The notes beneath the pieces are model-generated. The model did not search any database, was not told the DNA's origin, and saw only the letters and a list, made by a program, of their open reading frames with translations. Source: an uncultured Lachnospiraceae bacterium (lineage in GTDB: Bacteria > Bacillota > Clostridia > Lachnospirales > Lachnospiraceae). From it: 35,866 nucleotides of DNA. This document shows, in pieces, positions 37-33,995 of this stretch (positions are counted from its first letter, which is position 1; each line of letters begins with the position of its first letter). A program made the position numbers and the translations under genes. The DNA is taken from assembly GCA_947566705.1 (NCBI GenBank), contig CANOLA010000026.1:1-35866 (forward strand), in the 5' to 3' direction.

Positions 37-515
37 ATGGAGATTTATATGGAAAAGGTTTATACGAAAGAAGAGGAGAACAAAATACAATGGCATCAGG
101 CATTTGTAGGAGCGATGTATTGTGAAAAAGTTTACGAAAAATGGTGTTCCGGTAGAGTTGTCCAGCAGTATAGGGAAAATGAACGAAAGGACAGGGATAT
201 AACAGTTATGCTTGTTAAACAGAGATATCCTCTGTCACTTGTTCGTTATCTGGAAAGCAGGGGCTGCGTTATTACAGAAAAGCTGCCCGGTATCAGTACG
301 GTTTCTGGAAGCCAATTTTTTAATATTGTCATTTTTACTACCGGAAGAATGAGTCCTGAGAATAATATGTGGCTGAATGCGCTGCGTAGAAATATGGAAC
401 GTGAAAACTATGGCCGACTTGCTCGGGAAAGCAGCAGGGAATACAGCAGGTTGCGATTGGAATGTTAAAAGCCAACAAATTATCTGGGAAAGGAGTTGCC
501 ATATATTACTGTTGC
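37..515 (+). pseudogene. Rpn-type PD-(D/E)XK nuclease-like gene, decayed by internal deletions
   Basis: This is a reduced paralogue of the gene at 1996-2757. It keeps the family's N-terminal IQWHQAFVGAM motif, which the second copy lacks, then jumps straight to sequence matching 2041 onward, then loses about 118 bp corresponding to roughly 2093-2211, and later loses about 140 bp corresponding to roughly 2470-2608. The stretch at 122-172 is read out of the ancestral frame; the second deletion restores the frame, giving RENERKDRD and onward as in the other copy. The third deletion shifts the frame again and makes the stop at 466-468, while the ancestral frame (QQGIQQVAIGML) can still be followed to about 515. 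The EYK catalytic segment is gone, so nuclease activity is not expected. The family is often linked to recombination-promoting nucleases; that assignment is from general knowledge and is moderate. Confidence 0.7.
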
Positions 516-548
516 AAAATGTACATTATTATGCTATTATAATGCACA
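512..548 (+). promoter_or_regulatory. Promoter and overlapping inverted-repeat operator of the toxin-antitoxin pair
   Basis: A -35 TTGCAA at 512-517 and a -10 TATTAT at 535-540 are separated by 17 bp. An imperfect inverted repeat, TGTACATTAT at 520-529 and ATAATGCACA at 539-548, overlaps the promoter core (one mismatch between arms). Phd-type antitoxins usually repress their own operon by binding such palindromes, so autoregulation is inferred. Confidence 0.55.
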
Positions 549-567
549 AAGAAAGAGAGGTGTGCAT

Positions 568-831
568 ATGCCGCAGATTAGACCAATTACTGATTTAAGA
601 AATACAAATGATATATCAGATGTCTGCCATGCAGCGAAGGAGCCTATTTTTATTACAAAGAATGGATATGGTGATTTGGTTGTAATGAGTATAGAGACAT
701 ATGAACAGATAGTGGAAACACAGCTTATAGATAATGCAATTTCAGAAGCTGAGGAAGAATACGGAGCGACAGATATTTTACTTGACGCAAAAGAGACATT
801 AGCATCACTTAGGAGAAAACATTTTGGCTAA
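568..831 (+). CDS. Type II antitoxin, Phd/YefM family
   Basis: An 87-residue protein with the Phd/YefM fold signature: N-terminal PITDLRN, then EPIFITKNGYGDLVVMSIETYE, which matches the conserved strand-turn-helix (PV.iTknG....vvms.e.ye) of this DNA-binding antitoxin family. It is expected to neutralise the toxin encoded immediately downstream and to repress the shared promoter. The ATG at 568 is chosen because AGAGG lies just upstream at 556-560 and the homology starts there; a longer open frame back to 496 would run through the promoter. It overlaps the toxin start by 8 bp. Length is normal for the family and no residue looks broken. Confidence 0.88.
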   Translation: MPQIRPITDLRNTNDISDVCHAAKEPIFITKNGYGDLVVMSIETYEQIVETQLIDNAISEAEEEYGATDILLDAKETLASLRRKHFG

Positions 832-1126
832 ATATAGTGTAAAGTTGATGCAAAGAGCATACAGTGACCTTGATGATATTTACAATCATATTGCAGATGA
901 TTTTAAAGAAATAGATACGGCAGAAAAAATGGCAGATACTTTAGAAGATGCTATTCTGAGTCTGGCTGAGATGCCTTATCGGGGTTCCATAAGAAGAACA
1001 GGGGCTTTTGCTAATAGGGGGTATCGTCAGCTTTTGGTAAAGAATTTTACGCTTGTGTATCGTATTGATGAGGCTGGAAAGGTGGTTATTGTTGTTACTG
1101 TCAGATATACACCGAGTAGTTTTTAA
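824..1126 (+). CDS. Type II toxin, RelE/ParE family
   Basis: A 100-residue RelE/ParE-superfamily protein. The N-terminal part YSVKLMQRAYSDLDDIYNHI is the typical beta strand plus long helix, and the C-terminal part RQLLVKNFTLVYRIDEAGKVVIVVTVRYTPSSF is the sheet with the conserved Y-R-I and V-R motifs. RelE members cut ribosome-bound mRNA and ParE members poison gyrase; sequence alone does not decide, though the -YRI-/-VRY- pattern resembles ParE-like toxins. The start is a TTG at 824 inside the antitoxin gene, preceded by AGGAG at 811-815, so translation is coupled. The gene looks intact. Confidence 0.85.
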   Translation: MAKYSVKLMQRAYSDLDDIYNHIADDFKEIDTAEKMADTLEDAILSLAEMPYRGSIRRTGAFANRGYRQLLVKNFTLVYRIDEAGKVVIVVTVRYTPSSF

Positions 1127-12289: not shown

Positions 12290-13363
12290 TTACCCGTTTT
12301 CCCTCCTCAGCGACTCATCCACCGCAATTGTCACACTCTCACCGTCAGCGCCAATAAGGTAAATTCTCTGCAGAAAAACATTTACATTTTCCCCTTCGTG
12401 AATGAGTTCCTGACCGAGCTGGCGGTAGGCTGTCAGGTGTTGGCCATGTACACGGACAGTAAGCTCCATAACATTTCCCCGGAATGCCACCCGTTCCACG
12501 ATTCCTTCTTCCGTGGTGGCAGGATGGGGACAGGGCTCGTTCTTCTTCCGCACTGTAATATATTCCGGACGGATAACAGCCGAAGCGTCTGCTGTGGTAT
12601 CACGGAATCCTTTGAAGCGGGTATGGTCTATGGATATCGGATTACCAAGAAACTGCACGACAAACGGGGTCCTAGGATTATTGTAAACTTCTACCGGGGA
12701 GCCTGTCTGCTCAATTCTGCCATGGTTTGTGATAATAATTTTATCTGCTACTTCCACAGCCTCGTCCTGGTCGTGGGTGACAAAGATGCTGGTAATTCCC
12801 ACCTGGTTTATTAATTCACGCAGCCATTCCCGCAGTTCCTTTCTTACTTTTGCATCAATTGCGGCAAAAGGCTCATCCAGCAGCAGAAGCTGCGGCTGGA
12901 CAGCGAGCGCCCGTGCAAAAGCAACGCGTTGTCTCTGACCGCCGGAAAGCTGTTTGGGATAACGCTCTTCCAGTCCGGTTAATCCGACCAGTTCCATTAA
13001 TTCATCCACACGGTACTGAATGTCCCCTTTTTTCCAGTGGTTTATTTTTAATCCAAATGCAATATTATCAAATACGGTTTTGTGGCGGAAAAGGGCATAA
13101 TTCTGGAAAACGAACCCAATGCCGCGTTTTCCCGCCGGAATCTGGCTGACTGGTTTTCCGTCAATATAGATTTCTCCTGAATCAGCAGTTTCCAGGCCGG
13201 CAAGAATCCGGAGTATCGTGGTCTTTCCGCTTCCGCTTGGTCCCAGCAGTCCGATTAATTTTCCTTTTTCCACAGAAAAACTGATATCATCTGCTGCCTT
13301 AAAGTTTTTAAATGTTTTACTGATATGTTTCAGTTCCACGTATGTCTGTGTATGGTCTGGCAT
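12290..13363 (-). CDS. cysA: Sulfate ABC transporter ATP-binding protein
   Basis: A 357-residue ATPase with Walker A GPSGSGKT near 41-48, QNYALFRHKTVFDNIAFGL after the Q loop, signature LSGGQRQRVAFARAL, Walker B LLLLDEPFAAID and the switch FVTHDQDEAVE. The C-terminal 110 residues form a TOBE-like regulatory domain. FRHKTVFDNIAFGL is typical of CysA rather than sugar importers. The start is placed at 13363 (MPDHTQ) because AGGAGG lies 9 bp upstream, at 13373-13378, overlapping the CysW stop; the longer frame to 13411 has no such site. It is the last gene of the sulfate operon. Confidence 0.93.
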   Translation of the reverse strand: MPDHTQTYVELKHISKTFKNFKAADDISFSVEKGKLIGLLGPSGSGKTTILRILAGLETADSGEIYIDGKPVSQIPAGKRGIGFVFQNYALFRHKTVFDNIAFGLKINHWKKGDIQYRVDELMELVGLTGLEERYPKQLSGGQRQRVAFARALAVQPQLLLLDEPFAAIDAKVRKELREWLRELINQVGITSIFVTHDQDEAVEVADKIIITNHGRIEQTGSPVEVYNNPRTPFVVQFLGNPISIDHTRFKGFRDTTADASAVIRPEYITVRKKNEPCPHPATTEEGIVERVAFRGNVMELTVRVHGQHLTAYRQLGQELIHEGENVNVFLQRIYLIGADGESVTIAVDESLRRENG

Positions 13364-13376
13364 GGCAGGGTTCCTC

Positions 13377-14201
13377 CTAAGTTTCAAGCTCTTTTTTTCC
13401 GCGGTATTCAAGCAGGTTGCGGAGTATCAGAATAATCACAGCCATGACAATTAAAATGGAAGACATGGCAAATGCTCCGGTAAAGTCAAATCCCTGGTAC
13501 AATAGTTCAATATGCAGCGGCATGGTGTTGGTGAGTCCCCGCAGGTGTCCGGACAGTACCGAGACGGCTCCGAATTCCCCCATTGCCCTTGCGGAACAGA
13601 GTACAACTCCGTACAGGAATGCCCAGCGGATGTGCGGGAATGTAATCTGCGTAAAAATCTGGAATCCATTCGCTCCCATCAGTGCTGCGGCTTCTTCCTC
13701 CTCATTTCCGATGACCGTAAGAACCGGAATCAGTTCCCTTGAAATAAAAGGAAGTGTGACAAAAACCGTTGCAAGAATGATACCCGGCTGTGCAAAAATA
13801 ATCTGGATATCATGGGCTTCCAGAAACGGATAAATGATGCTCTGCCGTCCAAATGTCAGCAGAAAAACCAGTCCTGCAATAACTGGTGAAATGGAAAGCG
13901 GCAGGTCCATAATGGTGGAAATGATTTTTTTTCCCCGGAACTGGAAACGGGTAATCAGCCATGCGGCAAAAAGACCAAAAACAGAATTGACAATTACTGT
14001 AATTACAGTTACTTTTACAGTCAGTCCGATGGATTTTAATGCATAAGAGTCTGTGACCGCGTTTTGGTATGCGGCAAAGCCGTCACGCAGTGCCGTAATA
14101 ATAACATACAGAAGCGGAAGAACCAGCATGGTGATTAAAAAAAGAGCGCTGATTCCAATTAAAATCCATTTTATGATTCCTTTATCGTTGCGAACCTGCA
14201 T
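13377..14201 (-). CDS. cysW: Sulfate ABC transporter permease
   Basis: A 274-residue permease with about six membrane segments. The cytoplasmic EAA loop is EEAAALMGANGFQIFTQITF, and the family block MGEFGAVSVLSGHLRGLTNT follows, as in CysW. The start at 14201 (MQVRND) is chosen because GGAGGG is 9 bp upstream at 14211-14216; the longer frame to 14261 would overlap CysT. With CysT it forms the membrane channel for sulfate or thiosulfate. It follows CysT after about 25 bp and its stop overlaps the ribosome site of cysA, so the genes are translationally close. Confidence 0.92.
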   Translation of the reverse strand: MQVRNDKGIIKWILIGISALFLITMLVLPLLYVIITALRDGFAAYQNAVTDSYALKSIGLTVKVTVITVIVNSVFGLFAAWLITRFQFRGKKIISTIMDLPLSISPVIAGLVFLLTFGRQSIIYPFLEAHDIQIIFAQPGIILATVFVTLPFISRELIPVLTVIGNEEEEAAALMGANGFQIFTQITFPHIRWAFLYGVVLCSARAMGEFGAVSVLSGHLRGLTNTMPLHIELLYQGFDFTGAFAMSSILIVMAVIILILRNLLEYRGKKELET

Positions 14202-14226
14202 AGTGTTATTCCCTCCAAAGAGTTCT

Positions 14227-15042
14227 TTACCGTTTACTGGCACGGTTTTGTACAATGGCATTTACAAACAGGATGAGAAATGAAAAAAGCAGCATAACCA
14301 GTGCTATGGCCGTAGAGCCTTCATAATCAAATTCCTGAAGTTTTGCCATAATAATGAGCGGTGTAATTTCAGTCTGGTATGGTGTGTTTCCGGCAATAAA
14401 TACAACGCTTCCGTATTCACCGATGCACCTGGCAAATGCCATGGTAAAGCCTGCGGTCAGTGCCGGAAAAATTTCCGGCAGGATAACCTGGAAAAATGCC
14501 TGTGTGCGGGAAGCGCCAAGCATGGCTGCGGCTTCCTCGTATTCCGGTTCCAGTTTTTCCAGAACCGGCTGGATACTTCGTACAACAAACGGGATGCCGA
14601 TAAAAACCAGTGCAGCCGTAATTCCGATTCTGGTGTAGGCAATCTGTATTCCGTTCTTTGCAAACAGACTGCCAATCCATCTTTCCGGTACGGTAAGATG
14701 TGTCAGGGAAATTCCCGCGACTGCCGTTGGAAGGGCGAATGGAAGTTCAATCATGCCGTCCATCAGCCGTTTTCCCGGAAAGCGGTAGCGTACCAGCACC
14801 CATGCAATAATAAGACCCATCACGGCATTGATAAGTGATGCTGTAAACGAGGTTAAAATACTGACCCTGTAGCTTGCCAGAACACGCGGATTTGTTACGG
14901 TTGCAATAAATTCAGCCCCTGTCAGTTTCAGTGAAAAAACGGCAAGTGAACAGAGGGGAATCACAACGCCCAGACCAAGCATGGCCGTTACAATTCCAAA
15001 TGAAAGGGAAAATCCGGGAATCACACGTTTCTTTTTCTTCAT
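14227..15042 (-). CDS. cysT: Sulfate ABC transporter permease
   Basis: A 271-residue permease with about six membrane segments. It carries IELPFALPTAVAGISLTHL, the EAA loop EYEEAAAMLGASRTQAFFQV, and ARCIGEYGSVVFIAGNTPYQ, which is diagnostic for CysT (CysU) proteins. A basic N-terminus (MKKKKRVIPGF) precedes the first helix. The start follows the binding-protein stop by 20 bp. A weak AAGGGCGG ribosome site is present. It is the partner of CysW. Confidence 0.92.
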   Translation of the reverse strand: MKKKKRVIPGFSLSFGIVTAMLGLGVVIPLCSLAVFSLKLTGAEFIATVTNPRVLASYRVSILTSFTASLINAVMGLIIAWVLVRYRFPGKRLMDGMIELPFALPTAVAGISLTHLTVPERWIGSLFAKNGIQIAYTRIGITAALVFIGIPFVVRSIQPVLEKLEPEYEEAAAMLGASRTQAFFQVILPEIFPALTAGFTMAFARCIGEYGSVVFIAGNTPYQTEITPLIIMAKLQEFDYEGSTAIALVMLLFSFLILFVNAIVQNRASKR

Positions 15043-15062
15043 TGTTTTTTGCCGCCCTTCTG

Positions 15063-16145
15063 TTATTTTTCGTAAACAGAGTCAAATATTCCATGGTCGG
15101 AAAAATGTTTTTCCGTTGCACTGGTCCATCCGCCGAAATGTCCGATATCCGTAAGGTCAATATCAGGGATAATCCATTTATGGTCTTTGGGAAGTTCTGT
15201 AATAGTGTTATTACTTCCCTCATAGACGTACTCGTTTAAAATTTCTTCATTTGACGGACGGTAGTACCAGTCTGCTTCCAGCCTCTGGGCTTCATCTGAA
15301 TACAGATAGTTTAAGTATTCATTGCAGACTTCCCTGGTCCCGTTTTTATCGGCAACTTTGTCAACAATGGCAACGGTCGGCTGGCAGAGAATGGATACGG
15401 ACGGCACGACAATTTCGTATTCGCCCGGATGTTCATCAAGAGTAAGAAAGGCCTCGTTTTCCCATGCAAGAAGCACATCCCCCTGTCCGTTTTCCACAAA
15501 AGAAGTAGTAGAACCCCTTGCACCGGAATCCAGTACAAGGACATGCTCAAAGATGGTTTTAATGTTTGCTGTAATTTCTTCTTCACTTAATCCCTGTTTT
15601 TCAAAATAGTACCATGCGGCAAGGTAGTTCCATCTTGCGCCGCCGGAGGTTTTCGGGTTTGGTGTTATAATGCCCACGTCATCAGACAGCAGGTCATCCC
15701 AGTCGGAAATATTTTTGGGATTATCCTTTCGGACCAGAAAAACGATGCAGGAAGTATATGGAGAGCTGTCCAGCGGAAATTCTTTCACATAACCGTCCTC
15801 AATCAGTCCGGCGTTTTTTACGGCATCCACATCTCCTTCCAGGGCAAGCGTTACAACATCCGCCGGAAGACCGTTTGCAACCTCCAGCGCCTGTTTGCCG
15901 GAGCCGCCATGGGACTGGGTGATGTTTACATCCTGTCCGGTCTGTTCTTTCCAGTGTTTCTGGAAAAGTTCGTTATATGCAGCGTACAGTTCCCGTGTCG
16001 GGTCATAGGAAACATTGGTGATTTCCACAGGATTTTTTGAAGTGCCGTTTTGTGTATTGTCTGCAGCGCTGCCAAAACCGCAGGCAGTAAGTGTGGCGCA
16101 GATAAGTGCGGCGGCAGCCAGTTTGGAGATTTTTCTTCTGTTCAT
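15063..16145 (-). CDS. Sulfate-binding lipoprotein of the ABC importer
   Basis: A 360-residue extracellular binding protein. The N-terminus is a lipoprotein signal (ICATLTAC, lipobox cysteine at residue 22). The mature part has the Sbp/CysP signature: SYDPTRELY, the block SHGGSGKQALEV, ADVVTLALEGDVD, then LVRKDNPKNISDWDDL and PNPKTSGGARWNYLAAWYY. These residues form the anion pocket in the family. It should deliver sulfate (or thiosulfate) to CysT/CysW. It is the first gene of the importer half; 60 bp separate it from the sulfotransferase, including a short inverted repeat GTATA/TATAC at 16179-16196 that could mark a promoter or operator. Confidence 0.93.
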   Translation of the reverse strand: MNRRKISKLAAAALICATLTACGFGSAADNTQNGTSKNPVEITNVSYDPTRELYAAYNELFQKHWKEQTGQDVNITQSHGGSGKQALEVANGLPADVVTLALEGDVDAVKNAGLIEDGYVKEFPLDSSPYTSCIVFLVRKDNPKNISDWDDLLSDDVGIITPNPKTSGGARWNYLAAWYYFEKQGLSEEEITANIKTIFEHVLVLDSGARGSTTSFVENGQGDVLLAWENEAFLTLDEHPGEYEIVVPSVSILCQPTVAIVDKVADKNGTREVCNEYLNYLYSDEAQRLEADWYYRPSNEEILNEYVYEGSNNTITELPKDHKWIIPDIDLTDIGHFGGWTSATEKHFSDHGIFDSVYEK

Positions 16146-16205
16146 GAATTTTAATCCTCTTTTCTAGTATTTAATTATGTATATCTGATGTTATACCCCA
16201 AAGCA

Positions 16206-17378
16206 TTATGTAAATGATTCATGGTGAAAAATCCGGTTCCATAGTGTGCAAAACGGATGTTTCAGCTTGTTCTTAAATATACGTAAAACCTTCTGTTCGT
16301 CTTTCACTGTCTGGCGTAAATCCTTAAGTTCCTGCCGGAGGATTTCGTTCTCACGGCGTAAATCGATTGAAACCAGAGAAAAAAAACGGATGATATCTTC
16401 TGTCATGTACGGATTGTCTTTTTCCCATCTGGGTAAATCCGGAATATCATCAGTAAACAGGGGACAGTTGTCCTTTATATACTCGGATGCAACCCTGGCA
16501 TTTCCTGCGGCGTATTTGTTTAACAGAGTACGTGTTTCTTCTCTGGAAAGCATACTGCATGGATAACGTTCGCCGGATTCCGGGGAAAGTGTTTTTAAAA
16601 ATGTCGTGAGAAACGTATTTTCCTCTTTGGAAAAAGAAGATTCTTTATTAATAATGCGCTTGATTTCTGCATTGTTTCCGGACAGTCCTGGGTTTACCAT
16701 ACGGGAAGGAAGAATAAAATCCTCGGTCAGTTCCAGCCCGATGCAGTCCATGAAATCATGGATGATGGAGTGGCGTACCCAGCTTCCGGGATCAAATCTG
16801 CGTACAATCAGGTTTTCTTTTCCGAACAGTTCAGCCATCCTGTCCAGTTTGGATGCATAATCCAGTACCAGCTTATATTTTTTCTGTGTCGTTTTTATAA
16901 AGCTTTCCAGTGTCTGTCTGCAGCTGGTCTTCCCCTGCTTGACGCACTGGTTCCAGTTAGAAACCAGAAACTGGTCCTGGCGGCGCAGATATACAATTAT
17001 TTTTATCTGATATCCCTGTTGTCTGGCTTCCTGTTCCAGATATGGAAAAAGTTCTTTGTGGGAATAACTGGATACGCGCCAGAGATTTTCCTCGGAAAGA
17101 ATGACATTGTCAAATTCTTTCATGCATTCAGCCACATTGTCCAGTCCTTCCCGCAGAAATTCCATTTCCAGCGGAAAATCCCTTGTACCATCCTCATAAT
17201 AAAGATTTTCCACCATAAAATGCGCATTACGGTTGGAGCAGACATAGGGATATTTATGAGGCAGCTTTGGAAAACAGCAGCCATGTTTTTCCAGTGTTTT
17301 ACGGTTAATCTGTAAAAATTCCTGGATGGAGGAGGTGGCTGTTTTCGGTGTGCCAATATGTAAATACAGGGTTTTCAT
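16206..17378 (-). CDS. PAPS-dependent sulfotransferase
   Basis: A 390-residue cytoplasmic protein. Residues 3-20 (TLYLHIGTPKTATSSIQE) match the 5'-phosphosulfate-binding loop of sulfotransferases, and residues 127-141 (IIVYLRRQDQFLVSN) match the 3'-phosphate-binding motif with the conserved Arg and Ser. ILSEENLW at 93-100 is a usual third block. The last 60 residues contain a short coiled coil (LRRENEILRQELKDLRQTV). It should move sulfonate from PAPS to a hydroxyl or amine of an unknown acceptor such as a glycan, lipid or small molecule. AAAGG at 17386-17390 supports the start at 17378. It lies 14 bp after cysNC, the gene for PAPS synthesis. Confidence 0.82.
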   Translation of the reverse strand: MKTLYLHIGTPKTATSSIQEFLQINRKTLEKHGCCFPKLPHKYPYVCSNRNAHFMVENLYYEDGTRDFPLEMEFLREGLDNVAECMKEFDNVILSEENLWRVSSYSHKELFPYLEQEARQQGYQIKIIVYLRRQDQFLVSNWNQCVKQGKTSCRQTLESFIKTTQKKYKLVLDYASKLDRMAELFGKENLIVRRFDPGSWVRHSIIHDFMDCIGLELTEDFILPSRMVNPGLSGNNAEIKRIINKESSFSKEENTFLTTFLKTLSPESGERYPCSMLSREETRTLLNKYAAGNARVASEYIKDNCPLFTDDIPDLPRWEKDNPYMTEDIIRFFSLVSIDLRRENEILRQELKDLRQTVKDEQKVLRIFKNKLKHPFCTLWNRIFHHESFT

Positions 17379-17392
17379 GTAAATGCCTTTCT

Positions 17393-19210
17393 TTATAAAT
17401 TCAGTTTCTGTATGATTGTCTGTACACATTCGTGAATGGTTTTTCCGGTTGTATCTATTGTGAGGTCTGCATGCTCCGGAATTTCATAAGGGCTGCCAAG
17501 TCCGGTAAAGTCCTCGATTTTTCCGGAACGGGCGCCAGCGTAAAGTCCTTTTACATCGCGCCGCATACATTCTTCCAGCGGGGTGCTGACATATACTTCA
17601 AAAAATCCTTCCCCGATAATTTCCTTTGCACGTCTGCGGTCGGCGGCAAACGGCGAGATAAATGAGGTAAGGACAATCAGCCCTGCGTCATTAAACAGCT
17701 TTGCCACTTCCGCAACGCGGCGGATATTTTCAATCCGGTCCGGTTCGCTGAAACCTAAATCCCTGTTTAATCCCATGCGGATATTATCACCGTCCAGAAG
17801 CATGGTATGTTTATTTAATCCTGCCAGATATTTTTCGAGCTCGTTTGCAAGTGTGGACTTGCCAGAGCCGGATAATCCGGTAAACCAGATGGTGCGTGCT
17901 TTCTGTCCAAGCTGGTTTTCGCGGAAGGAACGGGTGATATCCATATTTTGCCATGTAAGGTGGCTGTCCTGCCGCAGGGAACGTGTAATGGTTCCGCATG
18001 CCGAGGTCATATGGCTTACGCGGTCAATTAAAATAAAAGATCCCAGGGCTTTATTCTGTTCAAAAGTATCAAAGACAAGGTCCGTTCCTGCCATAATATC
18101 ACAGCAGGCAATTTCGTTTGTGTAAATAACACTGGCAGGCACTTCCTGCCCGGATACCACGTCTGTTTTATAGTGAATCCGAAGCACCGTGCAGGAAACT
18201 TTCTGCGTGCCAGTTTTGATGAAATAACTCTTCCCGGCAGCAAGCCTTGAATTATCCATCCAGAGTAATGAAACGGTTAATAGCTGGTTGACAAAAAGCT
18301 GGCTGTCTTTTGTAAGAACACAGCCGCGGGAGACATCAATTTCACGGTCAAGCTGAAGCGTAACGGCATGTCCCTCTGATGAAGTTTTGACAGGAAGACT
18401 GCCCTGCAGGATCGACCGCACGTTTGCGGATTCTTTGCTTGGAAGAACGGTAACAGTATCCCCCACTGAAACGGACCCGCTTTCAATCTGTCCCTGAAAG
18501 CCCCGGAAGTTCTGGTCAGGACGGCAGACACGCTGCACTGGCATGGTAAAGCCGGTTCCTGCATTCTGGGTTCCGGTATCAATGTTTTCCAGATACGCCA
18601 GAAGCGGCATACCATGATACCACGGCATATGGCTGGAGCATCTGGTAATATTGTCCCCGAACGTGGCGGATACCGGAATCAGTTCCACAGAATCATAAGG
18701 AAACTCAGCCATCAGAATCCGGATTTCTTTTTGCAGCTTTTTAAAACGTTCATGGGAAAAATCCACCAGGTCCATTTTATTTACTGCAAATACAAAGTGC
18801 CGGATACCCATAAGAGCGCAGATTCTTGTATGTCTGCGTGTCTGTGTCAGCACGCCCTTGCTGGCGTCTGCCAGAATTACGGCAAGGTCGGCAAAAGATG
18901 CGCCGACTGCCATATTCCGGGTATATTCCTCATGCCCCGGTGTATCGGCAACAATAAAGGAACGTGCGTCTGTTGTGAAATAGCGGTAGGCAACATCAAT
19001 AGTAATTCCCTGTTCACGTTCTGCAGTAAGCCCGTCCAAAAGCAGGCTGTAATCAATCCCGCCGTCTGCCGAACCAAGCTTTGAATCCAGCTTTAGCGCC
19101 TCTTTCTGGTCTGCAAAAAGAAGTTTGGCATCATAAAGCATATGCCCGATCAGGGTGGATTTTCCGTCGTCTACACTTCCGCAGGTAATAAATTTTAATA
19201 GTGTATGCAT
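17393..19210 (-). CDS. cysNC: Sulfate adenylyltransferase large subunit fused to APS kinase
   Basis: A 605-residue bifunctional enzyme. The N-terminal CysN GTPase has GSVDDGKS at 11-18, DTPGH at 89-93 and NKMD at 144-147, followed by elongation-factor-like beta domains. From about residue 430 an APS kinase domain follows, with P-loop GLSGSGKS at 445-452, DGDNIR at about 473-478 and FISPF at about 517-521. CysN with CysD makes APS from sulfate and ATP, driven by GTP hydrolysis; the kinase domain converts APS to PAPS. The start codon touches the cysD stop with no gap, so they are co-translated. The length fits CysNC fusions. Confidence 0.95.
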   Translation of the reverse strand: MHTLLKFITCGSVDDGKSTLIGHMLYDAKLLFADQKEALKLDSKLGSADGGIDYSLLLDGLTAEREQGITIDVAYRYFTTDARSFIVADTPGHEEYTRNMAVGASFADLAVILADASKGVLTQTRRHTRICALMGIRHFVFAVNKMDLVDFSHERFKKLQKEIRILMAEFPYDSVELIPVSATFGDNITRCSSHMPWYHGMPLLAYLENIDTGTQNAGTGFTMPVQRVCRPDQNFRGFQGQIESGSVSVGDTVTVLPSKESANVRSILQGSLPVKTSSEGHAVTLQLDREIDVSRGCVLTKDSQLFVNQLLTVSLLWMDNSRLAAGKSYFIKTGTQKVSCTVLRIHYKTDVVSGQEVPASVIYTNEIACCDIMAGTDLVFDTFEQNKALGSFILIDRVSHMTSACGTITRSLRQDSHLTWQNMDITRSFRENQLGQKARTIWFTGLSGSGKSTLANELEKYLAGLNKHTMLLDGDNIRMGLNRDLGFSEPDRIENIRRVAEVAKLFNDAGLIVLTSFISPFAADRRRAKEIIGEGFFEVYVSTPLEECMRRDVKGLYAGARSGKIEDFTGLGSPYEIPEHADLTIDTTGKTIHECVQTIIQKLNL

Positions 19211-20104
19211 TTAAAAATACCCCTCTCTTTTACGCTTCTCCATGCTTGCCGTTCCGCCGTCGCTGTCAATCATCCGGCTGGTGCGTTCGGATGATACCGC
19301 GCTTAAGGTTTCTTCGATTACGGCATCAATTGTACTGGCATCCGATTCGATTCCGCCGGAAAGCGGATAACAGCCGAGCGTGCGGAAACGGACTTTTTTC
19401 ATTACCGGTTTTTCACCGGGAAGCAGACGCATTCGTTCATCATCTACCAGAATCAGGTTTCCGTTTCTTTCCACAACCGGACGTTCGGCGGCAAAGTAGA
19501 GTGGTACGATTTCAATATTTTCTCGTTTGATGTACTGCCAGATATCGCTTTCCGTCCAGTTGGAAATTGGAAATACCCGGATGCTTTCCCCTTTATTGAT
19601 TTCGGTGTTATAAAGCTTCCACATTTCCGGGCGCTGGTGTTTCGGGTCCCATGCATGGTTTGGATTCCGGAAGGAAAATATACGCTCTTTTGCGCGGCTT
19701 TTTTCCTCATCACGCCGTCCGCCGCCGAATGCCGCAGTGAATCCGTATTTGTCCAGTGCCTGCTTTAAAGCCTGAGTTTTCATAATGTCAGTATAGGCAG
19801 AGCCGTGGTCAAATGGGTTAATGCCCTGTTTTAATCCGTCTTCATTTATGTATTCCAGCATTTGAATTTTGTATTTTGCTGTTGTTTTATCGCGAAATGA
19901 AATCATTTCCTTAAATTTCCATGTGGTGTTCACATGCAAAAATGGAAAAGGAGGTTTTTCCGGATAAAAGGCTTTCAGTGCAAGATGCAGCATGACGGAA
20001 GAATCTTTTCCAATGGAATAGAGCATAACCGGTTTTTCACATTCTGCAGCGACTTCGCGCATGATGTAAATAGCTTCTGCTTCAAGCTTGTCTAAATGAT
20101 TCAT
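19211..20104 (-). CDS. cysD: Sulfate adenylyltransferase subunit 2
   Basis: A 297-residue PP-loop ATP pyrophosphatase. SIGKDSS at 30-36 is the PP motif, and [40 protein letters not shown] and [15 protein letters not shown] are CysD hallmarks (the last is split across a longer block). It adenylates sulfate together with CysN. AGGAG (CTCCT at 20111-20115 on the plus strand) lies 6 bp upstream of the ATG. It is the first gene of the minus-strand operon and is divergent from a response regulator, with 121 bp between starts. No reductase (CysH, CysIJ, Asr) lies nearby. Confidence 0.95.
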
Positions 20105-20162
20105 GATGTACTCCTATCGCTTTTTCTGAAATACATAATAAAAAAGTTTTCTTGAAAAAAGA

Positions 20163-20190
20163 TTGAAATATGGATTTTTTTGTATATAAT
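20163..20190 (+). promoter_or_regulatory. Sigma-70 promoter of the second two-component operon
   Basis: TTGAAA at 20163-20168 and TATAAT at 20185-20190 with 16 bp spacing lie 35 bp before the regulator start, in the divergent gap shared with cysD. Confidence 0.65.
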
Positions 20191-20225: not shown

Positions 20226-20906
20226 TTGAGAATTTTGGTTGTGGAAGATTCACTGCGGCTTGCGGATACACTGTCAGAGGCACTGTCGAAAGCAGGTTAT
20301 ACAGTTGATGTGGTTAATGACGGAAGGGAGGGGTATGAAAATGCGGTAAGCGGAATTTATGATATCGTGATACTGGATTTAATGCTTCCTACGATGAACG
20401 GATATGAGGTGCTCGCCGCTATCCGCAGGGAAGGACAGGAGGTTCCGGTGCTGATTTTATCTGCGAAAACGGAACTGGAAGACAAGGTGGAAGGCTTTAC
20501 GCTTGGCGCGGATGATTATGTGACAAAGCCGTTTGAAGTGAAAGAACTTCTGATGCGGATACAGGCAATCGTAAGAAGGCGCGCCGGGCAGGAAATTATA
20601 TCACTGCAGGCAGGAAACCTTATGCTTAATACGGCTGCCTGTGAGCTTTCCAATTCAGAAAGCAAAAAAACAATGAAAATTGCAGGAAAGGAAATGCAGC
20701 TTCTGGAATTTTTTCTTTTAAACCAGAACCAGGTGCTGGAAAAAGAGCAGATTGCGACAAAAATCTGGGGCTATGAATCAAACGCGGAATACAACAATGT
20801 CGAAGTCTATGTTTCCTTTCTGAGGAAAAAATTTAAGAATCTGCATGCGGACGTGCAAATTCGCGCTGTTCGCGGAATCGGGTATATTTTAGAGGTTATC
20901 AGATGA
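20226..20906 (+). CDS. OmpR-type response regulator (second system)
   Basis: A 226-residue regulator with Glu7/Asp8, phospho-acceptor Asp51 (IVILDLMLPTMNGYE), Ser79 and Lys101 (DDYVTKPFEVKELL), then a winged-helix domain ending VRGIGYILEV. The start is a TTG at 20226, supported by GGAG at 20214-20217 eight bases upstream and by the homology beginning exactly there. The stop overlaps the kinase start by 4 bp (ATGA). It resembles the CusR/QseB/RR02 group. Being divergent from the sulfate operon, it could control it, which is inference only. Confidence 0.93.
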   Translation: MRILVVEDSLRLADTLSEALSKAGYTVDVVNDGREGYENAVSGIYDIVILDLMLPTMNGYEVLAAIRREGQEVPVLILSAKTELEDKVEGFTLGADDYVTKPFEVKELLMRIQAIVRRRAGQEIISLQAGNLMLNTAACELSNSESKKTMKIAGKEMQLLEFFLLNQNQVLEKEQIATKIWGYESNAEYNNVEVYVSFLRKKFKNLHADVQIRAVRGIGYILEVIR

Positions 20907-22120
20907 TAAAAACGTTACGGAAAAAAATAAGTATTATATTTGCAAGTCTGCTGGGCGCGATTTGGGTCTTGATTATTGTGCTTTTTAACTGGTCAAATTA
21001 TAAGGGGCAGCTTCGGGAGCTGCGTTCCAGTGTACGTTTGGAAATTAAGGAATCTGGCTGGAACAAATTTTTGAAGACCGGGGGAGAGGATGAAGCATTT
21101 GACCTTAAAGACCTGGAATATTGTGTGGTCCAGTTAAAAGAAGACGGTACGGTGTCCGTACTGGCGAATCATTTTCCAAGTATACCGGAGGAGAGCCTGA
21201 CTGGGTATATTGTGGAGCAGAGGAAAAATAACTGGACGCTGGATGACGGGTTTTCAAAGATTACATATATCAGCAAATTTAAGAAAAAATATGGAAAATG
21301 TCTGGTTTTAATTAGTACAAAACCGGCGCTCAGGGCAGAGATGAAGCTTGCGGCAGTAAGCCTGGTTATTGCTGTGGCGGGGATATTTGTGCTTATTGCA
21401 GCTGTAAAATATCTGTCCGGCTGGCTGGTGCGTCCGGTGGAAGAATCCATTCAGTCCGAGAAAAAATTTATGTCCAATGCGAGCCATGAATTAAAAACCC
21501 CGCTGACTGTGATACGGACAAATATTGAATTATTATCGGATGAAATCGGGGGGAATAAGCATCTGCAGTATATCGGAATGGAGACGGAGCGGATGGTTTC
21601 CCTTGTAAATAAAATGCTGACGCTGGTTCGGCTGGATGCACATTACACGGAGCAGAAATTCCAGAAATTCCGTCTGGACGAAGCGCTTTTAAATGTGATT
21701 TATCCGATGGAAAGCGTGGCATATGAGAAGAATATCAGGATGGATATCCAGGTGGAGGAGGGGATGGGTTTTACTGGAAATGAGGAGCAGATTCAGAGCG
21801 TAATGTCCATTCTTCTGGATAACGCCATCAGCTATACCTCCGAGGGAGGAAGCATAGAAATCAGTGCAAAAATCCATTCCCGTAAATTTTATCTTATTGT
21901 GGCAAACACTGGAGATCCGATTCCGGCGGAGCTTAAGGATAAAATGTTTGAACGTTTTTACCGGCAGGATGAAGCGAGGGAAAGCACGTCAGAACATCTG
22001 GGACTGGGGCTTTCCATTGCCAAAAGCATTGTGGAAAAACATCACGGCAAAATCCGTGTGGAAAGCGTCGGCGGGATGAATATTTTCCATGTTGTGCTCC
22101 CGGTGGTAAAAAAGGGGTAG
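20903..22120 (+). CDS. Sensor histidine kinase (second system)
   Basis: A 405-residue HisKA kinase. Membrane segments lie near 10-32 and 155-178, enclosing an extracellular domain of about 120 residues. The H box is KFMSNASHELKTPLTVIRTN with His195. The ATPase domain has the N box (SILLDNAISYTS), a G1 region (IVANTGDPIP), an F box (MFERFYRQDEA) and G2 (LGLGLSIAKSIVEKHHGKI). The G1 box reads NTGDPI rather than the usual DNGxGI, a common variant. It is cognate to the regulator it overlaps. A strong terminator follows immediately. Confidence 0.92.
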   Translation: MIKTLRKKISIIFASLLGAIWVLIIVLFNWSNYKGQLRELRSSVRLEIKESGWNKFLKTGGEDEAFDLKDLEYCVVQLKEDGTVSVLANHFPSIPEESLTGYIVEQRKNNWTLDDGFSKITYISKFKKKYGKCLVLISTKPALRAEMKLAAVSLVIAVAGIFVLIAAVKYLSGWLVRPVEESIQSEKKFMSNASHELKTPLTVIRTNIELLSDEIGGNKHLQYIGMETERMVSLVNKMLTLVRLDAHYTEQKFQKFRLDEALLNVIYPMESVAYEKNIRMDIQVEEGMGFTGNEEQIQSVMSILLDNAISYTSEGGSIEISAKIHSRKFYLIVANTGDPIPAELKDKMFERFYRQDEARESTSEHLGLGLSIAKSIVEKHHGKIRVESVGGMNIFHVVLPVVKKG

Positions 22121-23539: not shown

Positions 23540-25984
23540 TTAACCCATAATTACTTCCACATCAACGGATGTTTTGCCATCCGGAAGTGGGATTGTATTG
23601 CCGCTTACGGCATTTCCATCAACTGTCATGGAAGCTACGCCTTTTTCTACATGGTTCGGGTTTTTGACAGTGATATTGTATGTGACGCCCCGGAAATCGC
23701 GTTTTGCTGTAAAGCCGTCCATGTCTGACGGAATACAAGGGTCAACTACAAGTCCGTCATAGTCCGGGCGGATACCAAGAATAAACTGGGACACATCCAG
23801 GAATGTCCATGCAGCAGTACCGGTCAGCCAGCTGTTTTTGGCTTCGCCAAAGTTTTTCGCATCTTTTCCGGCAATCATCTGTGAATACACATACGGTTCC
23901 GTACGGTGGATTTCACTGATATCCTCAATATATGCAGGACAAGTGCGGGTATATACCTGCCATGCGCGGCTGCCGCGTCCGACGACCGTTTCCGCAATTG
24001 AAATCCACGGGTTGTTGTGACAGAAAATACCTGCATTTTCCTTGTATCCCGGCGGATAGGAGGAAATTTCGCCAAGCTCCACATGGTATCTGCGGTATGG
24101 CGGCTGGAGCAGTACAATGCCGTACTGGGTATCCAGATGTTTCTCCACGGATTCCATGGCTTTTAGGCAGTTGCCCTCTTTCAGTCCGATTTCTGCCATG
24201 ACACAGAAGCCCTGCGGCTCAATGAAAATCTGTCCTTCTTCACATTCCTTTGAACCGATTTTGTTTTTATCGTTGTCATAGGCGCGTAAGAACCATTCAC
24301 CGTCCCAGCCTGCGTCAAGAACAGTATTTTCCATATCTGCAATTGCTTTTTCTGCAAAAGCGGCTTCATCGTCCAGTCCCCTGTGACGGCAGATTTGCAC
24401 GTAATCCTTTCCATAGCGGACAAACATTCCTGCGATAAATACAGACTCTGCATTAGGTCCTTCCGAAGGTCCGAATGTCTGGAAGGATTCTCCCGGCTCT
24501 GTGGAGAAACAGTTTAAGTTCAGGCAGTCGTTCCAGTCGGCACGCCCGATCAGCGGAAGCTTATGCGGTCCAAGGTGGTCAATCGTATAATGGAACGAAC
24601 GTCTTAAATGCTCCATAAAATCCGTGGCCTTTGACGGATCACTGTCATAAGGCGTCATCTCGTCGAGGATACTGTAATCCCCGGTTTCCTTGATATATGC
24701 AGCGGTACCGGCAATCAGCCAGAGCGGATCGTCATTGAAACCGCTTCCGATATCGGAATTTCCTTTTTTGGTGAGCGGCTGGTACTGGTGGTAGGCGCTT
24801 CCGTCTTCAAACTGTGTGGCTGCGATATCTAAAATACGTTCCCTTGCGCGGTCCGGAATCAGATGCACAAAGCCGAGCAGGTCCTGGCAGGAATCCCTAA
24901 ATCCCATGCCGCGCCCGATACCAGACTCAAAGTAAGAAGCGGAACGGCTCATGTTAAAGGTTACCATACACTGGTACTGGTGCCAGATATTTACCATGCG
25001 GTCCAGCTTTTCCTCGGAAGAGGAAACGGTAAAGTGTGACAGCAGCTTATCCCAGTAGGCTTTTAATTCCGTAAGGGCAGCGTCAGCCTTTTCCTTCGTG
25101 TCAAAATCCTTCATCAGGCTCTCGGCAGGGGCGCGGTTGATATTGCCGTCCTTCGGGTCGCCTGTCCATTTTTCTTCCGCCGGGTTTTCTATATACGCAA
25201 GCATAAATACGAAAGTTTTTGATTCTCCTGGTGCAAGCGAAACCTTTAAATGGTGGGAACCAACCGGCGCCCAGCCGCTTGCAACGGAATTTTTGGATTC
25301 TCCGGAAACAACGGCTTCCGGTGCGGAATTTTCGCCATATGCACCAAGGAAGGAATCACGGTCCGTATCAAAGCCGTCAATTTCTGCATTTACAGTATAG
25401 AGTGCATAATGGTTGCGGCGTTCCCGGTACTCGGTCTTGTGGTAAATGGCGGAACCATGGATTTCCACTTCACCGGTGGAGAAGTTACGCTGGAAATTTG
25501 TCATGTCGTCCATGGCATTCCACAGACAGAACTCCACATAGGAAAAAACGGAAAACTCTTTGGCATCTGTACCGTTGTTGGTCAGGGTCAGCTCGTTGAT
25601 TTCGCAGTTTCTTCCAACCGGAACAAAGGCGGTCAGTTCGGCGTGCAGGTTGTTTTTGCTGCTCTTAAATGTGGTGTAGCCCATGCCGTGGCGGCATTCA
25701 TAGGAATCAAGGTCTGTTTTGGCTGGCATCCAGCCCGGATTCCAGATGCTGTCCCCTTCTTTCATGTAATAATAGTGTCCGTTACTGTCATACGGGACAT
25801 TGTTGTAGCGGTATCTTGTCAGGCGCAGCAGTTTTGCGTCCTTGTAGAAGCTGTAGCCTCCGCAGGTGTTGGAAATCAGGGAAAAGAAGTTTTCAGATCC
25901 GAGATAGTTGATCCATGGGAGCGGTGTTTTCGGAGATGTAATGACATACTCCTTGTTTGCATCATCAAAATAGCCAAATTTCAT
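23540..25984 (-). CDS. Cellobiose phosphorylase (GH94)
   Basis: An 814-residue cytoplasmic enzyme, the usual length for cellobiose phosphorylase, which splits cellobiose with phosphate into glucose 1-phosphate and glucose. The N-terminal beta-sandwich domain starts [15 protein letters not shown] and the (alpha/alpha)6 barrel carries [20 protein letters not shown] and the catalytic block [20 protein letters not shown] (DWND at about 483-486), followed by [20 protein letters not shown]. These match cellobiose rather than chitobiose or cellodextrin phosphorylases, though the last is not fully excluded. The start at 25984 has GGAGG 8 bp upstream (CCTCC at 25993-25997). Gene and promoter stand alone; no sugar transporter is adjacent. 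Confidence 0.92.
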
Positions 25985-26063
25985 GTGTGCATCCTCCAAT
26001 ACAAGATTTGCTGGTTTGGGATTTCCGGTATATTTCCGGTAATCCGCCGGTTACGTGTGGTTA

Positions 26064-30464: not shown

Positions 30465-30767
30465 ACATTTTTATCTCAAAAACTTTAAATTTTTACAAAA
30501 ATGTATATGATTTTTTACAATCGAGTAATTAGAGGGTGTTTTTCTGTTATGATAGGTTTGTCTTTGAAAGGATCAGGCAAAGAGTGTAACCGGATGTTAT
30601 ATTATGACCGCAGGATCAGCGTTTATCATGTTTGTGGCGGCTGGTCTACCGGAGAAGGGCGGTCGTGGTCTGGATGCTGGAGAGGCGGGGCATGGTGAAA
30701 AGAGAGACTGCAGGAAACAAAGATATGCCGGAAGATGAAAGCAGTGGTGGAAGTGGGGGAAAAGATG
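30465..30767 (+). other. Regulatory leader upstream of the first DUF6273 gene
   Basis: This stretch holds the direct repeats at 30489-30520 and a -10 TATGAT at 30548-30553 with a poor -35 (GTAATT). Beyond it, to 30767, small open frames exist (for example one starting MTAGSAFIMFV around 30614) but none has a good ribosome site or recognisable family. A long untranslated leader is likely. Confidence 0.5.
30489..30520 (+). promoter_or_regulatory. 22-bp-spaced direct repeats, candidate LytTR binding site
   Basis: ATTTTTACAA at 30489-30498 and TTTTTTACAA at 30511-30520 repeat with a 22-bp period just upstream of a weak -35 and a TATGAT -10. LytTR regulators bind 9-bp direct repeats about 21-22 bp apart at this position. 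Control by the regulator at 28425 is inferred; the repeat text itself is not the textbook consensus. Confidence 0.45.
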
Positions 30768-31529
30768 ATGAAAAAAAGAATCCGCATATGCGCGTTGTGT
30801 CTTGCCATGATTTTTATTGCTGGCAGTTGCGGGGACAGGGAACTCACTTTGGAGAAAATTGCGTATGACAAATCTGCGAAGGATTATACGGTGTATTTAA
30901 AGGAAAACGGGGAATATGTGCCGTATCTGGTGCTTTCGTCAGATTATAATGGAAATGTGCTGCTCCTGCGAAAATATCTTCTGCCGGAGAATATGCAGTA
31001 CAAAAAACATAGTGAGTGGTGGACAAGGGATGAAAATGGTTCTTACTACGAAGAGAGCAGTGTTGATGACTTCCTGAATACGGAATTTTACGATAGTCTG
31101 AGTCCGTGTACAAAGGACAATATCCTGGAATGTGAAATTGAAGTTACCAGTAAAGAAAGCTACCAGGAAGACGATTTTACAACGCATTATATTCCCCGTA
31201 AAGTTTTTCTTTTATCCGCATTTGAACTTTATATAGGAGGGATGGAGTACTCGACGGCGGAGGAGGGGAAAAGGCTGAAGTATTTCAAAAAGATGATGGC
31301 AGCTGAAAAAAGTGCTTGTTTAGCAGATGGTAAAAAACTGCCCTACTGGACTCGGACGCCGTTTATTTATGAAACCTGTACGGTAGTTGTTGTCGGGACG
31401 GATGTGATTGGAGCTTCTACCGCAGATCTTTCTCTTGCAGTCCGTCCGGCATTTTGCATGGACAAAGAAACTGTTATTAAAAAAAGCGGGGATGTAATTA
31501 CCGGGGAGCAGGTTTATGTCATTGAGTAG
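30768..31529 (+). CDS. DUF6273 lipoprotein, copy A
   Basis: A 253-residue exported protein. The signal peptide ends IFIAGSCGD, a non-canonical lipobox whose Cys is probably lipidated. The mature domain has the DUF6273 pattern: SSVDDFLNTEFYDSLS, PRKVFLLSAFEL, LPYWTRTPF and AVRPAFCMDKETV; the family has a C-type-lectin/formylglycine-like look and unknown function. The start at 30768 has GGGGGA 7 bp upstream; ATGs at 30735 and 30765 are alternatives. Its first 190 bp and last 140 bp are almost identical to copy B at 33228, while the middle differs. The CBM2 gene follows after about 75 bp, probably in one operon. Confidence 0.8.
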   Translation: MKKRIRICALCLAMIFIAGSCGDRELTLEKIAYDKSAKDYTVYLKENGEYVPYLVLSSDYNGNVLLLRKYLLPENMQYKKHSEWWTRDENGSYYEESSVDDFLNTEFYDSLSPCTKDNILECEIEVTSKESYQEDDFTTHYIPRKVFLLSAFELYIGGMEYSTAEEGKRLKYFKKMMAAEKSACLADGKKLPYWTRTPFIYETCTVVVVGTDVIGASTADLSLAVRPAFCMDKETVIKKSGDVITGEQVYVIE

Positions 31530-33227: not shown

Positions 33228-33995
33228 ATGAGGAAAAGAAAGGGATTTATATGTGTGCTGCTTTTTGCCATGATTTTTATTGCTGGCAGTTGCGGGGACA
33301 GGGAACTCACTTTGGAGAAAATTGCGTATAACAAATCTGCGAAGGATTATACGGTGTATTTGAAGGAAAACGGGGAATATGTACCGTATCTGGTGCTTTC
33401 GTCAGATTATAATGAAAATGTGCTGCTCCTGCGAAAAAATTTACTGCCTGACCTTATGCCGTATAAAAAGCATAGCGAGTGGTGGGCATGGTATGAATAT
33501 GGTTCTTACTACGAAGAAAGCAGTGTTGATGATTTTTTAAATACGGATTTTTATAATTTCCTGAGTGAATATACAAAGGAGAAGATAACAGAAAGTGAAA
33601 TTGAAGTTACGGACAAAGAATGTTATAATAGCGATAGTCATAAAACGCATACGATTTCCCGTAAGGTTTTTCTCTTGTCCTCAGTGGAACTTGGAATAGA
33701 AGGATTTGATGGAAATATAACAACGAAGGAAGGGGAATCGTTGAAATATTTTAGAAAAAAAGAATTTGCGGAAAAAGGCGCTTATCTGGAGGATGGAAGA
33801 AAAATGCCTTATTGGACACGGACGCCTGACCTTTGGGAGTCGTGCATTGTAGTGGTAATAGGGGCGGAAATTATAGATACCGTGACGGCAGATTCTTCAA
33901 GCGGTGTCCGTCCGGCATTTTGCATGGACAAAGAAACTGTCATTAAAAAAAGCGGGGATGTAATTACCGGGGAGCAGGTTTACGTCATTGAGTAG
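33228..33995 (+). CDS. DUF6273 lipoprotein, copy B
   Basis: A 255-residue paralogue of copy A. The signal peptide (GFICVLLFAMIFIAGSCGD) and the first 65 mature residues are nearly identical, and so are the last 28 residues plus about 40 bp beyond the stop, while the middle (for example VTDKECYNSDSHKTH and GIEGFDGNITTKEGES) has drifted to roughly half identity with small indels. Key DUF6273 blocks (FLNTDFYNFLS, SRKVFLLSSVEL, MPYWTRTPD, VRPAFCMDKE) are kept. AAAGGGAAAG lies just before the ATG. It has its own spacing after the CBM2 terminator and may use a separate or read-through promoter. Confidence 0.8.
   Translation: MRKRKGFICVLLFAMIFIAGSCGDRELTLEKIAYNKSAKDYTVYLKENGEYVPYLVLSSDYNENVLLLRKNLLPDLMPYKKHSEWWAWYEYGSYYEESSVDDFLNTDFYNFLSEYTKEKITESEIEVTDKECYNSDSHKTHTISRKVFLLSSVELGIEGFDGNITTKEGESLKYFRKKEFAEKGAYLEDGRKMPYWTRTPDLWESCIVVVIGAEIIDTVTADSSSGVRPAFCMDKETVIKKSGDVITGEQVYVIE

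What the first reader, a model, noticed from the sequence alone, without database searches (positions are those of the whole stretch)
12290..20104. A self-contained sulfate-import-to-sulfonation operon
Seven minus-strand genes encode every step from outside sulfate to a sulfonated product: binding protein, CysT, CysW, CysA, CysD, CysN-CysC, and a PAPS-dependent sulfotransferase placed between PAPS synthesis and the importer. No PAPS reductase or sulfite reductase is in the window. In known assimilation clusters the PAPS or APS is reduced; here the tight order (0 bp cysD-cysNC, 14 bp to the sulfotransferase) argues that PAPS is made for sulfonation. PAPS-driven sulfonation is known in gut Bacteroides; a dedicated cluster with its own importer in a Firmicute would be notable. 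The acceptor is unknown.
Basis: partly seen in the sequence, partly recalled or inferred. Interest (0 to 1): 0.8.

Follow-up and report, generated by a model that had tools for sequence, protein, structure and literature searches.

The report
Gut bacterium's dedicated sulfate-attachment operon
A gut bacterium carries, beside its own sensor genes, a gene set that appears to import sulfate, activate it and attach it to a still unknown, probably cell-surface, molecule rather than use it for growth; gene sets of this kind are known from other bacterial groups.

Summary
In detail: seven minus-strand genes (CysD, CysNC, sulfotransferase, Sbp, CysT, CysW, CysA) with the stated spacing. The sulfotransferase matches no Pfam or NCBIfam model but keeps PAPS-binding motifs and a confident predicted sulfotransferase fold, closest to a bacterial sulfotransferase and to heparan-sulfate sulfotransferases. 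Comparison inside the genus supports the sulfonation reading: of 34 cysD loci, 15 have CysN without APS kinase, 14 of them beside APS reductase; 18 have kinase-bearing CysNC, none beside APS reductase and 8 beside this sulfotransferase; one is cut. The own genome (84% complete) shows no cysH or aprA. Relatives fill the importer slot with different transporter families; three fuse the sulfotransferase in frame to a substrate-binding lipoprotein; two add the PAP phosphatase CysQ. New here: an orthologous two-component system recurs in sulfotransferase loci, and a direct repeat lies in all 11 divergent promoter regions that I compared. The acceptor is unknown; a surface glycan is my best guess. 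Comparable importer-PAPS-sulfotransferase sets are published for Bacteroides and Cobetia, so this is a new variant of a known kind.

The parts
19211..20104 (-). cysD, ATP sulfurylase small subunit, first gene of the operon
   Evidence: NCBIfam NF009214 501.7 bits over a 413 cut-off
17393..19210 (-). cysNC, ATP sulfurylase GTPase subunit fused to APS kinase (PAPS synthesis)
   Evidence: NCBIfam NF004035 801.7 bits; APS_kinase PF01583 over residues 438-586
16206..17378 (-). PAPS-dependent sulfotransferase of an unnamed family; 5'-PSB HIGTPKTAT, 3'-PB YLRRQDxxxxS, C-terminal long helix and basic tail
   Evidence: Conserved motifs; model pLDDT 91.9; best fold matches are sulfotransferases
15063..16145 (-). 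sbp, sulfate-binding lipoprotein (lipobox LTAC, by eye)
   Evidence: NCBIfam NF008022 389.8 bits; hydropathy of the signal stretch
14227..15042 (-). cysT, sulfate ABC permease
   Evidence: TIGR02139 349.3 bits
13377..14201 (-). cysW, sulfate ABC permease (start re-set to the ATG behind GGAGGG)
   Evidence: TIGR02140 335.2 bits; sequence
12290..13363 (-). cysA, sulfate ABC ATPase (start re-set to the ATG behind AGGAGG)
   Evidence: TIGR00968 354.6 bits; sequence
20152..20168 (-). Direct repeat TTTCAA-N6-TTCAA between the two divergent operons; proposed response-regulator site
   Evidence: One copy in the window, 0.17 expected by chance, 15 of 100 shuffles hold at least one; present in all 11 divergent regions compared, one with a T for C in the second half
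20163..20190 (+). Promoter-like site of the regulator operon (TTGAAA-16-TATAAT); its -35 overlaps the repeat
   Evidence: Consensus scan only, 11 of 12 positions; 24 such sites found in the region against 13.7 in shuffles
20226..20906 (+). OmpR-type response regulator, divergent from cysD
   Evidence: PF00072 and PF00486; relatives 54-79% identical in nine named sulfotransferase loci
20903..22120 (+). Sensor histidine kinase
   Evidence: PF00512 and PF02518; full-length relatives 36-69% identical in nine named sulfotransferase loci

Best explanation
This is a dedicated sulfonation operon. Sbp, CysT, CysW and CysA import sulfate; CysD and CysNC turn it into PAPS; the sulfotransferase moves the sulfuryl group from PAPS to an acceptor. 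The divergent two-component system probably controls the operon through the direct repeat between the two promoters. The acceptor is most likely a surface glycan or wall polymer that is sulfonated at the inner face of the membrane before export. Shown by sequence: gene content, order, spacing, PAPS-binding motifs, predicted fold, co-occurrence, no linked APS reductase, a recurring regulator pair and a shared repeat. Inferred: PAPS use in vivo, regulation, membrane association, acceptor. The confidence is for the sulfonation operon as a whole; I put the surface-glycan acceptor at about 0.5.
Against: The assembly is 84% complete, so absence of cysH or aprA is not proof. A 513-aa NirA-like protein on contig C41 could be a sulfite reductase. 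Ten of 18 kinase-bearing genus loci have no adjacent sulfotransferase of this family, and G410 has no sulfotransferase by three searches. PF00685 was not searched in AprA genomes, so the 3-of-4 count has no control. Two relatives with the sulfotransferase (G445, G455) also hold a 588- or 626-aa PAPS-reductase-family protein. Stops lie inside 3 of 20 genus matches (G425, G398, a fragment of G437) and inside 6 of 45 family rows; I did not sort out which are true interruptions. The TauA-type importer scores as an aliphatic-sulfonate binder (TIGR01728), so in those relatives the imported compound may not be sulfate. Foldseek TM-scores are modest (best 0.39 by query length). No biochemical data were seen for this family, and nothing at the window names the acceptor.
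Confidence: 0.8

Rival explanations
1. Same operon, but the acceptor is a small molecule (steroid, bile acid, lipid, xenobiotic), as with BT_0416 in Bacteroides.
For: The Bacteroides cluster of comparable layout sulfonates cholesterol (PMC9417993, passages). I saw no glycan-polymer genes beside the window operon (ORFs read by eye; Pfam for a few).
Confidence: 0.3
2. Dual use: PAPS from this operon also feeds cysteine synthesis through a reductase missing from the assembly.
For: 84% completeness; NirA-like protein on C41; G445 and G455 hold a PAPS-reductase-family protein as well.
Against: The reductive loci seen in this genus use APS reductase with kinase-less CysN; G425 and G452 carry a separate locus for each task.
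Confidence: 0.12
3. Ordinary assimilation operon with a chance sulfotransferase neighbour.
For: CysDNC and SulT importers are standard assimilation genes; L114 lacks the adjacent sulfotransferase.
Against: Recurrent linkage in other genera, kinase/AprA exclusion, fusions, no AprA, AprB or genus-type sulfite reductase in 80 loci.
Confidence: 0.05

Closest known systems
Bacteroides thetaiotaomicron BT_0411-BT_0416 (PMC9417993; passages read)
   Same: Proposed sulfate importer (BT_0412), putative PAPS synthesis genes and a PAPS sulfotransferase side by side in a gut bacterium.
   Different: There the sulfotransferase makes cholesterol sulfate. Here the importer is a four-gene ABC system, the sulfotransferase has no Pfam model, and a two-component system recurs beside it.
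Cobetia marina KMM 1449 capsule cluster (PMC11766843; passages read)
   Same: cysN/C, cysD, cysQ and a sulfate permease in one operon, with sulfotransferase genes in the same capsule cluster; the capsule polysaccharide is reported as sulfated.
   Different: A capsule cluster of about 70 genes with one sulfate permease gene; the window operon has no such glycan cluster and has a regulator pair.
Rhizobial nodPQ-nodH (recalled; only a search listing seen)
   Same: CysD-like and CysNC-like proteins plus a sulfotransferase reserved for sulfonation (recalled).
   Different: No importer and a Nod-factor acceptor (recalled).
AprAB assimilation loci of the same genus (L094, L101, L104, L109 and others)
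   Same: Sbp-CysTWA importer (11 of 15 loci) and CysD-CysN.
   Different: APS reductase in place of APS kinase and sulfotransferase; a sulfite-reductase-like gene in 5 of 15 loci (the L094 protein holds PF01077).

Membership tests
PAPS-dependent sulfotransferase superfamily | 5'-phosphosulfate loop near the N terminus | tested here: met
   H7, G9, K12, T13 invariant and T10, T15 nearly so in 47 sequences; meaning of the motif recalled
PAPS-dependent sulfotransferase superfamily | 3'-phosphate motif Arg...Ser about 8 residues apart | tested here: met
   YLRRQDxxxxS: R132 nearly invariant, S140 invariant; meaning of the motif recalled
PAPS-dependent sulfotransferase superfamily | Sulfotransferase fold | tested here: met
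PAPS-dependent sulfotransferase superfamily | Sulfuryl transfer from PAPS | not testable with these tools
   Needs an enzyme assay
Pfam Sulfotransfer_1 (PF00685) / Sulfotransfer_3 (PF13469) | Score over the curated cut-off | tested here: not met
   No hit for this protein and none in the own genome
SulT sulfate ABC importer (Sbp-CysT-CysW-CysA) | All four components over an NCBIfam sulfate-transport cut-off | tested here: met
   NF008022, TIGR02139, TIGR02140, TIGR00968; CysT, CysW and CysA stay below NF008208, NF008620 and NF008105
SulT sulfate ABC importer (Sbp-CysT-CysW-CysA) | Transports sulfate rather than thiosulfate or another oxyanion | not testable with these tools
   Needs an uptake assay
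Assimilatory sulfate reduction operon | APS or PAPS reductase in the operon or genome | tested here: not met
   genome 84% complete
Assimilatory sulfate reduction operon | Sulfite reductase | tested here: inconclusive
   One NirA-like protein on contig C41 near a formate/nitrite-type channel
Dedicated sulfonation cluster (NodPQH / BT_0411-0416 kind) | PAPS synthesis and sulfotransferase genes adjacent | tested here: met
Dedicated sulfonation cluster (NodPQH / BT_0411-0416 kind) | PAP disposal | tested here: inconclusive
   CysQ in L138 and L044; the own genome has no match to that CysQ (no positive control) but has DHH-family proteins, one frame of 322 aa that may be NrnA
Dedicated sulfonation cluster (NodPQH / BT_0411-0416 kind) | Known sulfonated product | not testable with these tools
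   Acceptor unknown

The most novel reading that the evidence does not exclude
Lachnospiraceae sulfonate a cell-wall polymer or surface glycan under control of a dedicated two-component system, and the sulfotransferase works at the membrane beside the importer: in three relatives the two are one polypeptide, whose internal lipoprotein signal would put the transferase inside and the substrate-binding domain outside. This would be a regulated sulfated surface in Gram-positive gut commensals.
Probability: 0.3. Interest if true: 0.8.

Novelty: new variant of a known kind. Interest (0 to 1): 0.62.

Why it matters
Sulfated bacterial products can change host steroid levels (PMC9417993, passages). The gut sulfotransferase work that I saw concerns Bacteroides (that paper) and Sutterella (PMC10932419, search listing only). 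If this reading holds, gut Lachnospiraceae make sulfonated products with an enzyme family that current Pfam does not name, and probably control it with a sensor. Records with strain names carry related loci (Roseburia faecis M72, L125; Petralouisia muris NM01_1-7b, L170; Lachnospiraceae bacterium 3-2, L176; Anaerobutyricum hallii DSM 3353, L177), so the acceptor can be sought.

Tried and rejected
Sequence searches for the sulfotransferase: Pfam, NCBIfam and PDB gave nothing usable; PDB hits of the profile were mostly coiled-coil matches at E 0.075 and above. Regulon search with the repeat plus a trailing G in the own genome: 2 matches in 3.4 Mb, one here and one 3' of a gene that by eye looks like a cell-wall hydrolase; the control pattern read backwards gave 1, so the search shows no excess. 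Own-genome CysQ: no match to the L138 protein, with no positive control in that search. Paper searches for sulfonation clusters in Lachnospiraceae or other Firmicutes: nothing describing this operon in the listings shown. Model of the fused protein: mean pLDDT 79.7, two folded halves around a stretch under 50 at residues 384-421, so it says nothing on topology. Rows other than sulfotransferases in Foldseek (kinases, zeta toxins) I put down to a shared P-loop-like fold. Flagellin genes near CysDNC loci (L103, L110, L112) were a lead to a flagellin acceptor, but one AprA locus (L099) shows a flagellin match too.

Rows set aside: L117 (cut at cysD) from the kinase/AprA count. L038 from alignment A1. 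For alignment A2 I checked 50 of the 80 named loci; L124, L137, L142 and L158 were left out for a stop in the range, leaving 46 plus the window. L118, L122, L123, L128 and L140 have the contig lengths of genus loci L088, L086, L089, L087 and L100 and were dropped as duplicates from the CysD tree; five sets of identical rows stayed in it, four of them a family locus with a named locus. L148 has the regulator pair downstream and was not in the 11 regions.
Full report
OBSERVATION. Six are named by NCBIfam over curated cut-offs. The seventh, the sulfotransferase (16206-17378), has no Pfam or NCBIfam match. Its relatives keep HxGTPKT[AG]T at the N terminus and YLRRQDxxxxS in the middle, with few exceptions (15 sequences; 47 sequences). 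That these are the 5'- and 3'-phosphate motifs of PAPS sulfotransferases is recalled knowledge.

IS SULFATE REDUCED? PF01507 finds only this CysD in the own genome and no AprA is found at E 1e-30. The genome is 84% complete. PF01077 finds one NirA-like protein of 513 aa on contig C41 near a formate/nitrite-type channel, which may serve nitrite or sulfite.

The genus gives a natural comparison. CysD occurs in 31 of 62 genomes. I read 34 loci, the window included. Fifteen have CysN without APS kinase: 14 lie beside AprA, the 15th (L116) has only 35 bases upstream of cysD, and none has the sulfotransferase in the stretch. Eighteen have CysNC with kinase: none lies beside AprA and 8 lie beside the sulfotransferase. 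L089, L098 and L102 have under 1 kb upstream of cysD, but their genomes have no AprA match. One locus is cut. NCBIfam names the L094 protein adenylyl-sulfate reductase alpha (950.5 bits, cut-off 557). G425 and G452 carry one locus of each kind. At genome level, 15 of 62 have this sulfotransferase and all 15 have cysD (p 6e-6). Of 16 cysD genomes without AprA, 12 have it; of the other four, G412, G449 and G454 have a PF00685 sulfotransferase (in G412 just upstream of cysD), and G410 has none. AprA genomes were not searched for PF00685. Against the reading: G398 has AprA and a copy of the sulfotransferase with a stop inside, and G445 and G455 hold both the sulfotransferase and a 588- or 626-aa protein of the PAPS-reductase family.

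RECURRENCE. In 397 genomes of the family, 23 have a match, the own genome included. A scan of named genomes gave 365 relatives, of which the best 80 were kept. Of these 80, 41 have CysD, CysNC or CysC within the fetched stretch; 7 have SulT genes, 6 a TauA/SsuA-type importer and 11 a CHR-family transporter; none has a match to the genus AprA, AprB or sulfite reductase. A transporter of one of the three kinds is present in 19 of 41 linked and 5 of 39 unlinked loci; many stretches are cut by contig ends. The CysD tree puts the window in a clade of nine (support 100/93), all kinase-type, within which the neighbouring transporter is SulT, TauABC or CHR. So the core looks like CysD-CysNC-sulfotransferase with an exchangeable importer. 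That TauABC and CHR carry sulfate here is inference from position; the L181 binding protein scores as an aliphatic-sulfonate type.

PAP DISPOSAL. In L138 a CysQ lies between sulfotransferase and Sbp (TIGR01331, 232.4 bits, cut-off 228.8), and L044 has a 62% identical relative between CysNC and sulfotransferase. CysQ removes PAP, the by-product of PAPS use (stated in PMC11766843, passages). It matched no other of the 134 loci searched.

FUSIONS. In L118, L122 and L123 one reading frame runs from the sulfotransferase into a substrate-binding lipoprotein: Sbp-type in L118, TauA-type in the other two. The transferase's basic tail becomes the first part of the lipoprotein signal. In L118 there is no ATG, GTG or TTG in the 60 codons before the lipobox cysteine, so the binding protein has no usual start of its own; L122 and L123 do have in-frame ATG codons, so separate starts are not excluded there. 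These are metagenome assemblies, but the two TauA-type fusions come from two genomes. I read this as a sign that the two proteins act together at the membrane; topology is untested.

REGULATION. The window's divergent response regulator and kinase have close relatives in ten named sulfotransferase loci (kinase 36-69% identical over full length in nine, regulator 54-79% in nine; the other kinases match over the catalytic part only, at about 21-30%). A kinase or regulator gene of any kind lies within three genes of the core in 29 of 80 loci. In L119 and L120 the pair stands next to the sulfotransferase without CysD in the stretch; L146 is similar, with its sulfotransferase match in two pieces. 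I compared 11 divergent intergenic regions: all 11 hold TTTCAA-N6-TT[CT]AA in the same orientation, 10 of 11 the strict form, against 0.04 regions expected from shuffles; other spacings from 3 to 11 give 0 to 2. The motif was found in these same sequences and several regions are related, so the figure overstates the case. In the own genome the repeat followed by G occurs twice in 3.4 Mb, its backward control once.

ACCEPTOR. Unknown. Pointers to the surface: the fold; a TagF-like gene cluster (11 genes in 8 of 80 loci, one representative checked in Pfam) beside some sulfotransferases not linked to CysD; an acyltransferase-family gene upstream of the APS-kinase-linked locus L157; and glycosyltransferases near the CysDNC loci L091 and L107. 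None of this comes from the window itself, where I saw no glycan-polymer genes beside the operon.

PRIOR WORK. BT_0411-0416 in Bacteroides has a proposed importer, putative PAPS genes and a cholesterol sulfotransferase (PMC9417993, passages). Cobetia marina has cysNC, cysD, cysQ and a sulfate permease in the cluster of a sulfated capsule (PMC11766843, passages), and PMC11641403 calls PAPS plus sulfotransferase genes a hallmark of sulfated polysaccharide clusters (passages). In Vibrio vulnificus PAPS production is needed for rugose colonies (PMC6113621, passages). My searches listed no paper on such an operon in Lachnospiraceae.

VERDICT. The reading as a dedicated sulfonation operon is supported (about 0.8). 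It is a new variant of a known kind: another lineage, an unnamed sulfotransferase family, an exchangeable importer, fusions, and a linked sensor.

Noticed in passing
L118:8001-10196, L122 from 8001, L123 from 3649: Sulfotransferase and substrate-binding lipoprotein in one open frame, with two unrelated binding-protein types.
   Followed up: partly
L085:1873-3072; G398:C15:19077-20246: Sulfotransferase gene with an in-frame stop inside in two relatives; other family rows also show stops inside the match (6 of 45 rows).
   Followed up: no
L034:7389-8843 (own genome, contig C41): One 484-aa frame joins a formate/nitrite-type channel to a DJ-1 family domain, near a NirA-like reductase.
   Followed up: no
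L110, L112, L103, L139: CysD-CysNC loci with flagellin matches within the fetched stretch, which may point to sulfonated flagellin glycans; the AprA locus L099 has one too.
   Followed up: no
L153, L157, L159, L160, L179: Repeated order: gene of about 370 aa (acyltransferase family in L157), response regulator, kinase, stand-alone APS kinase, sulfotransferase.
   Followed up: partly
G405, G423, G441, G402, G418: Frames of about 590 aa in the PAPS-reductase family in genus members without a cysD match; their role is unclear.
   Followed up: no
window 496-1126: Small gene pair that looks by eye like an antitoxin/toxin pair of the Phd-ParE kind.
   Followed up: no
window 30735-31529 and 33228-33995: Two similar lipoprotein-like genes of unknown function (by eye).
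   Followed up: no
window 23540-25999: GH94 phosphorylase (PF17167).
   Followed up: no
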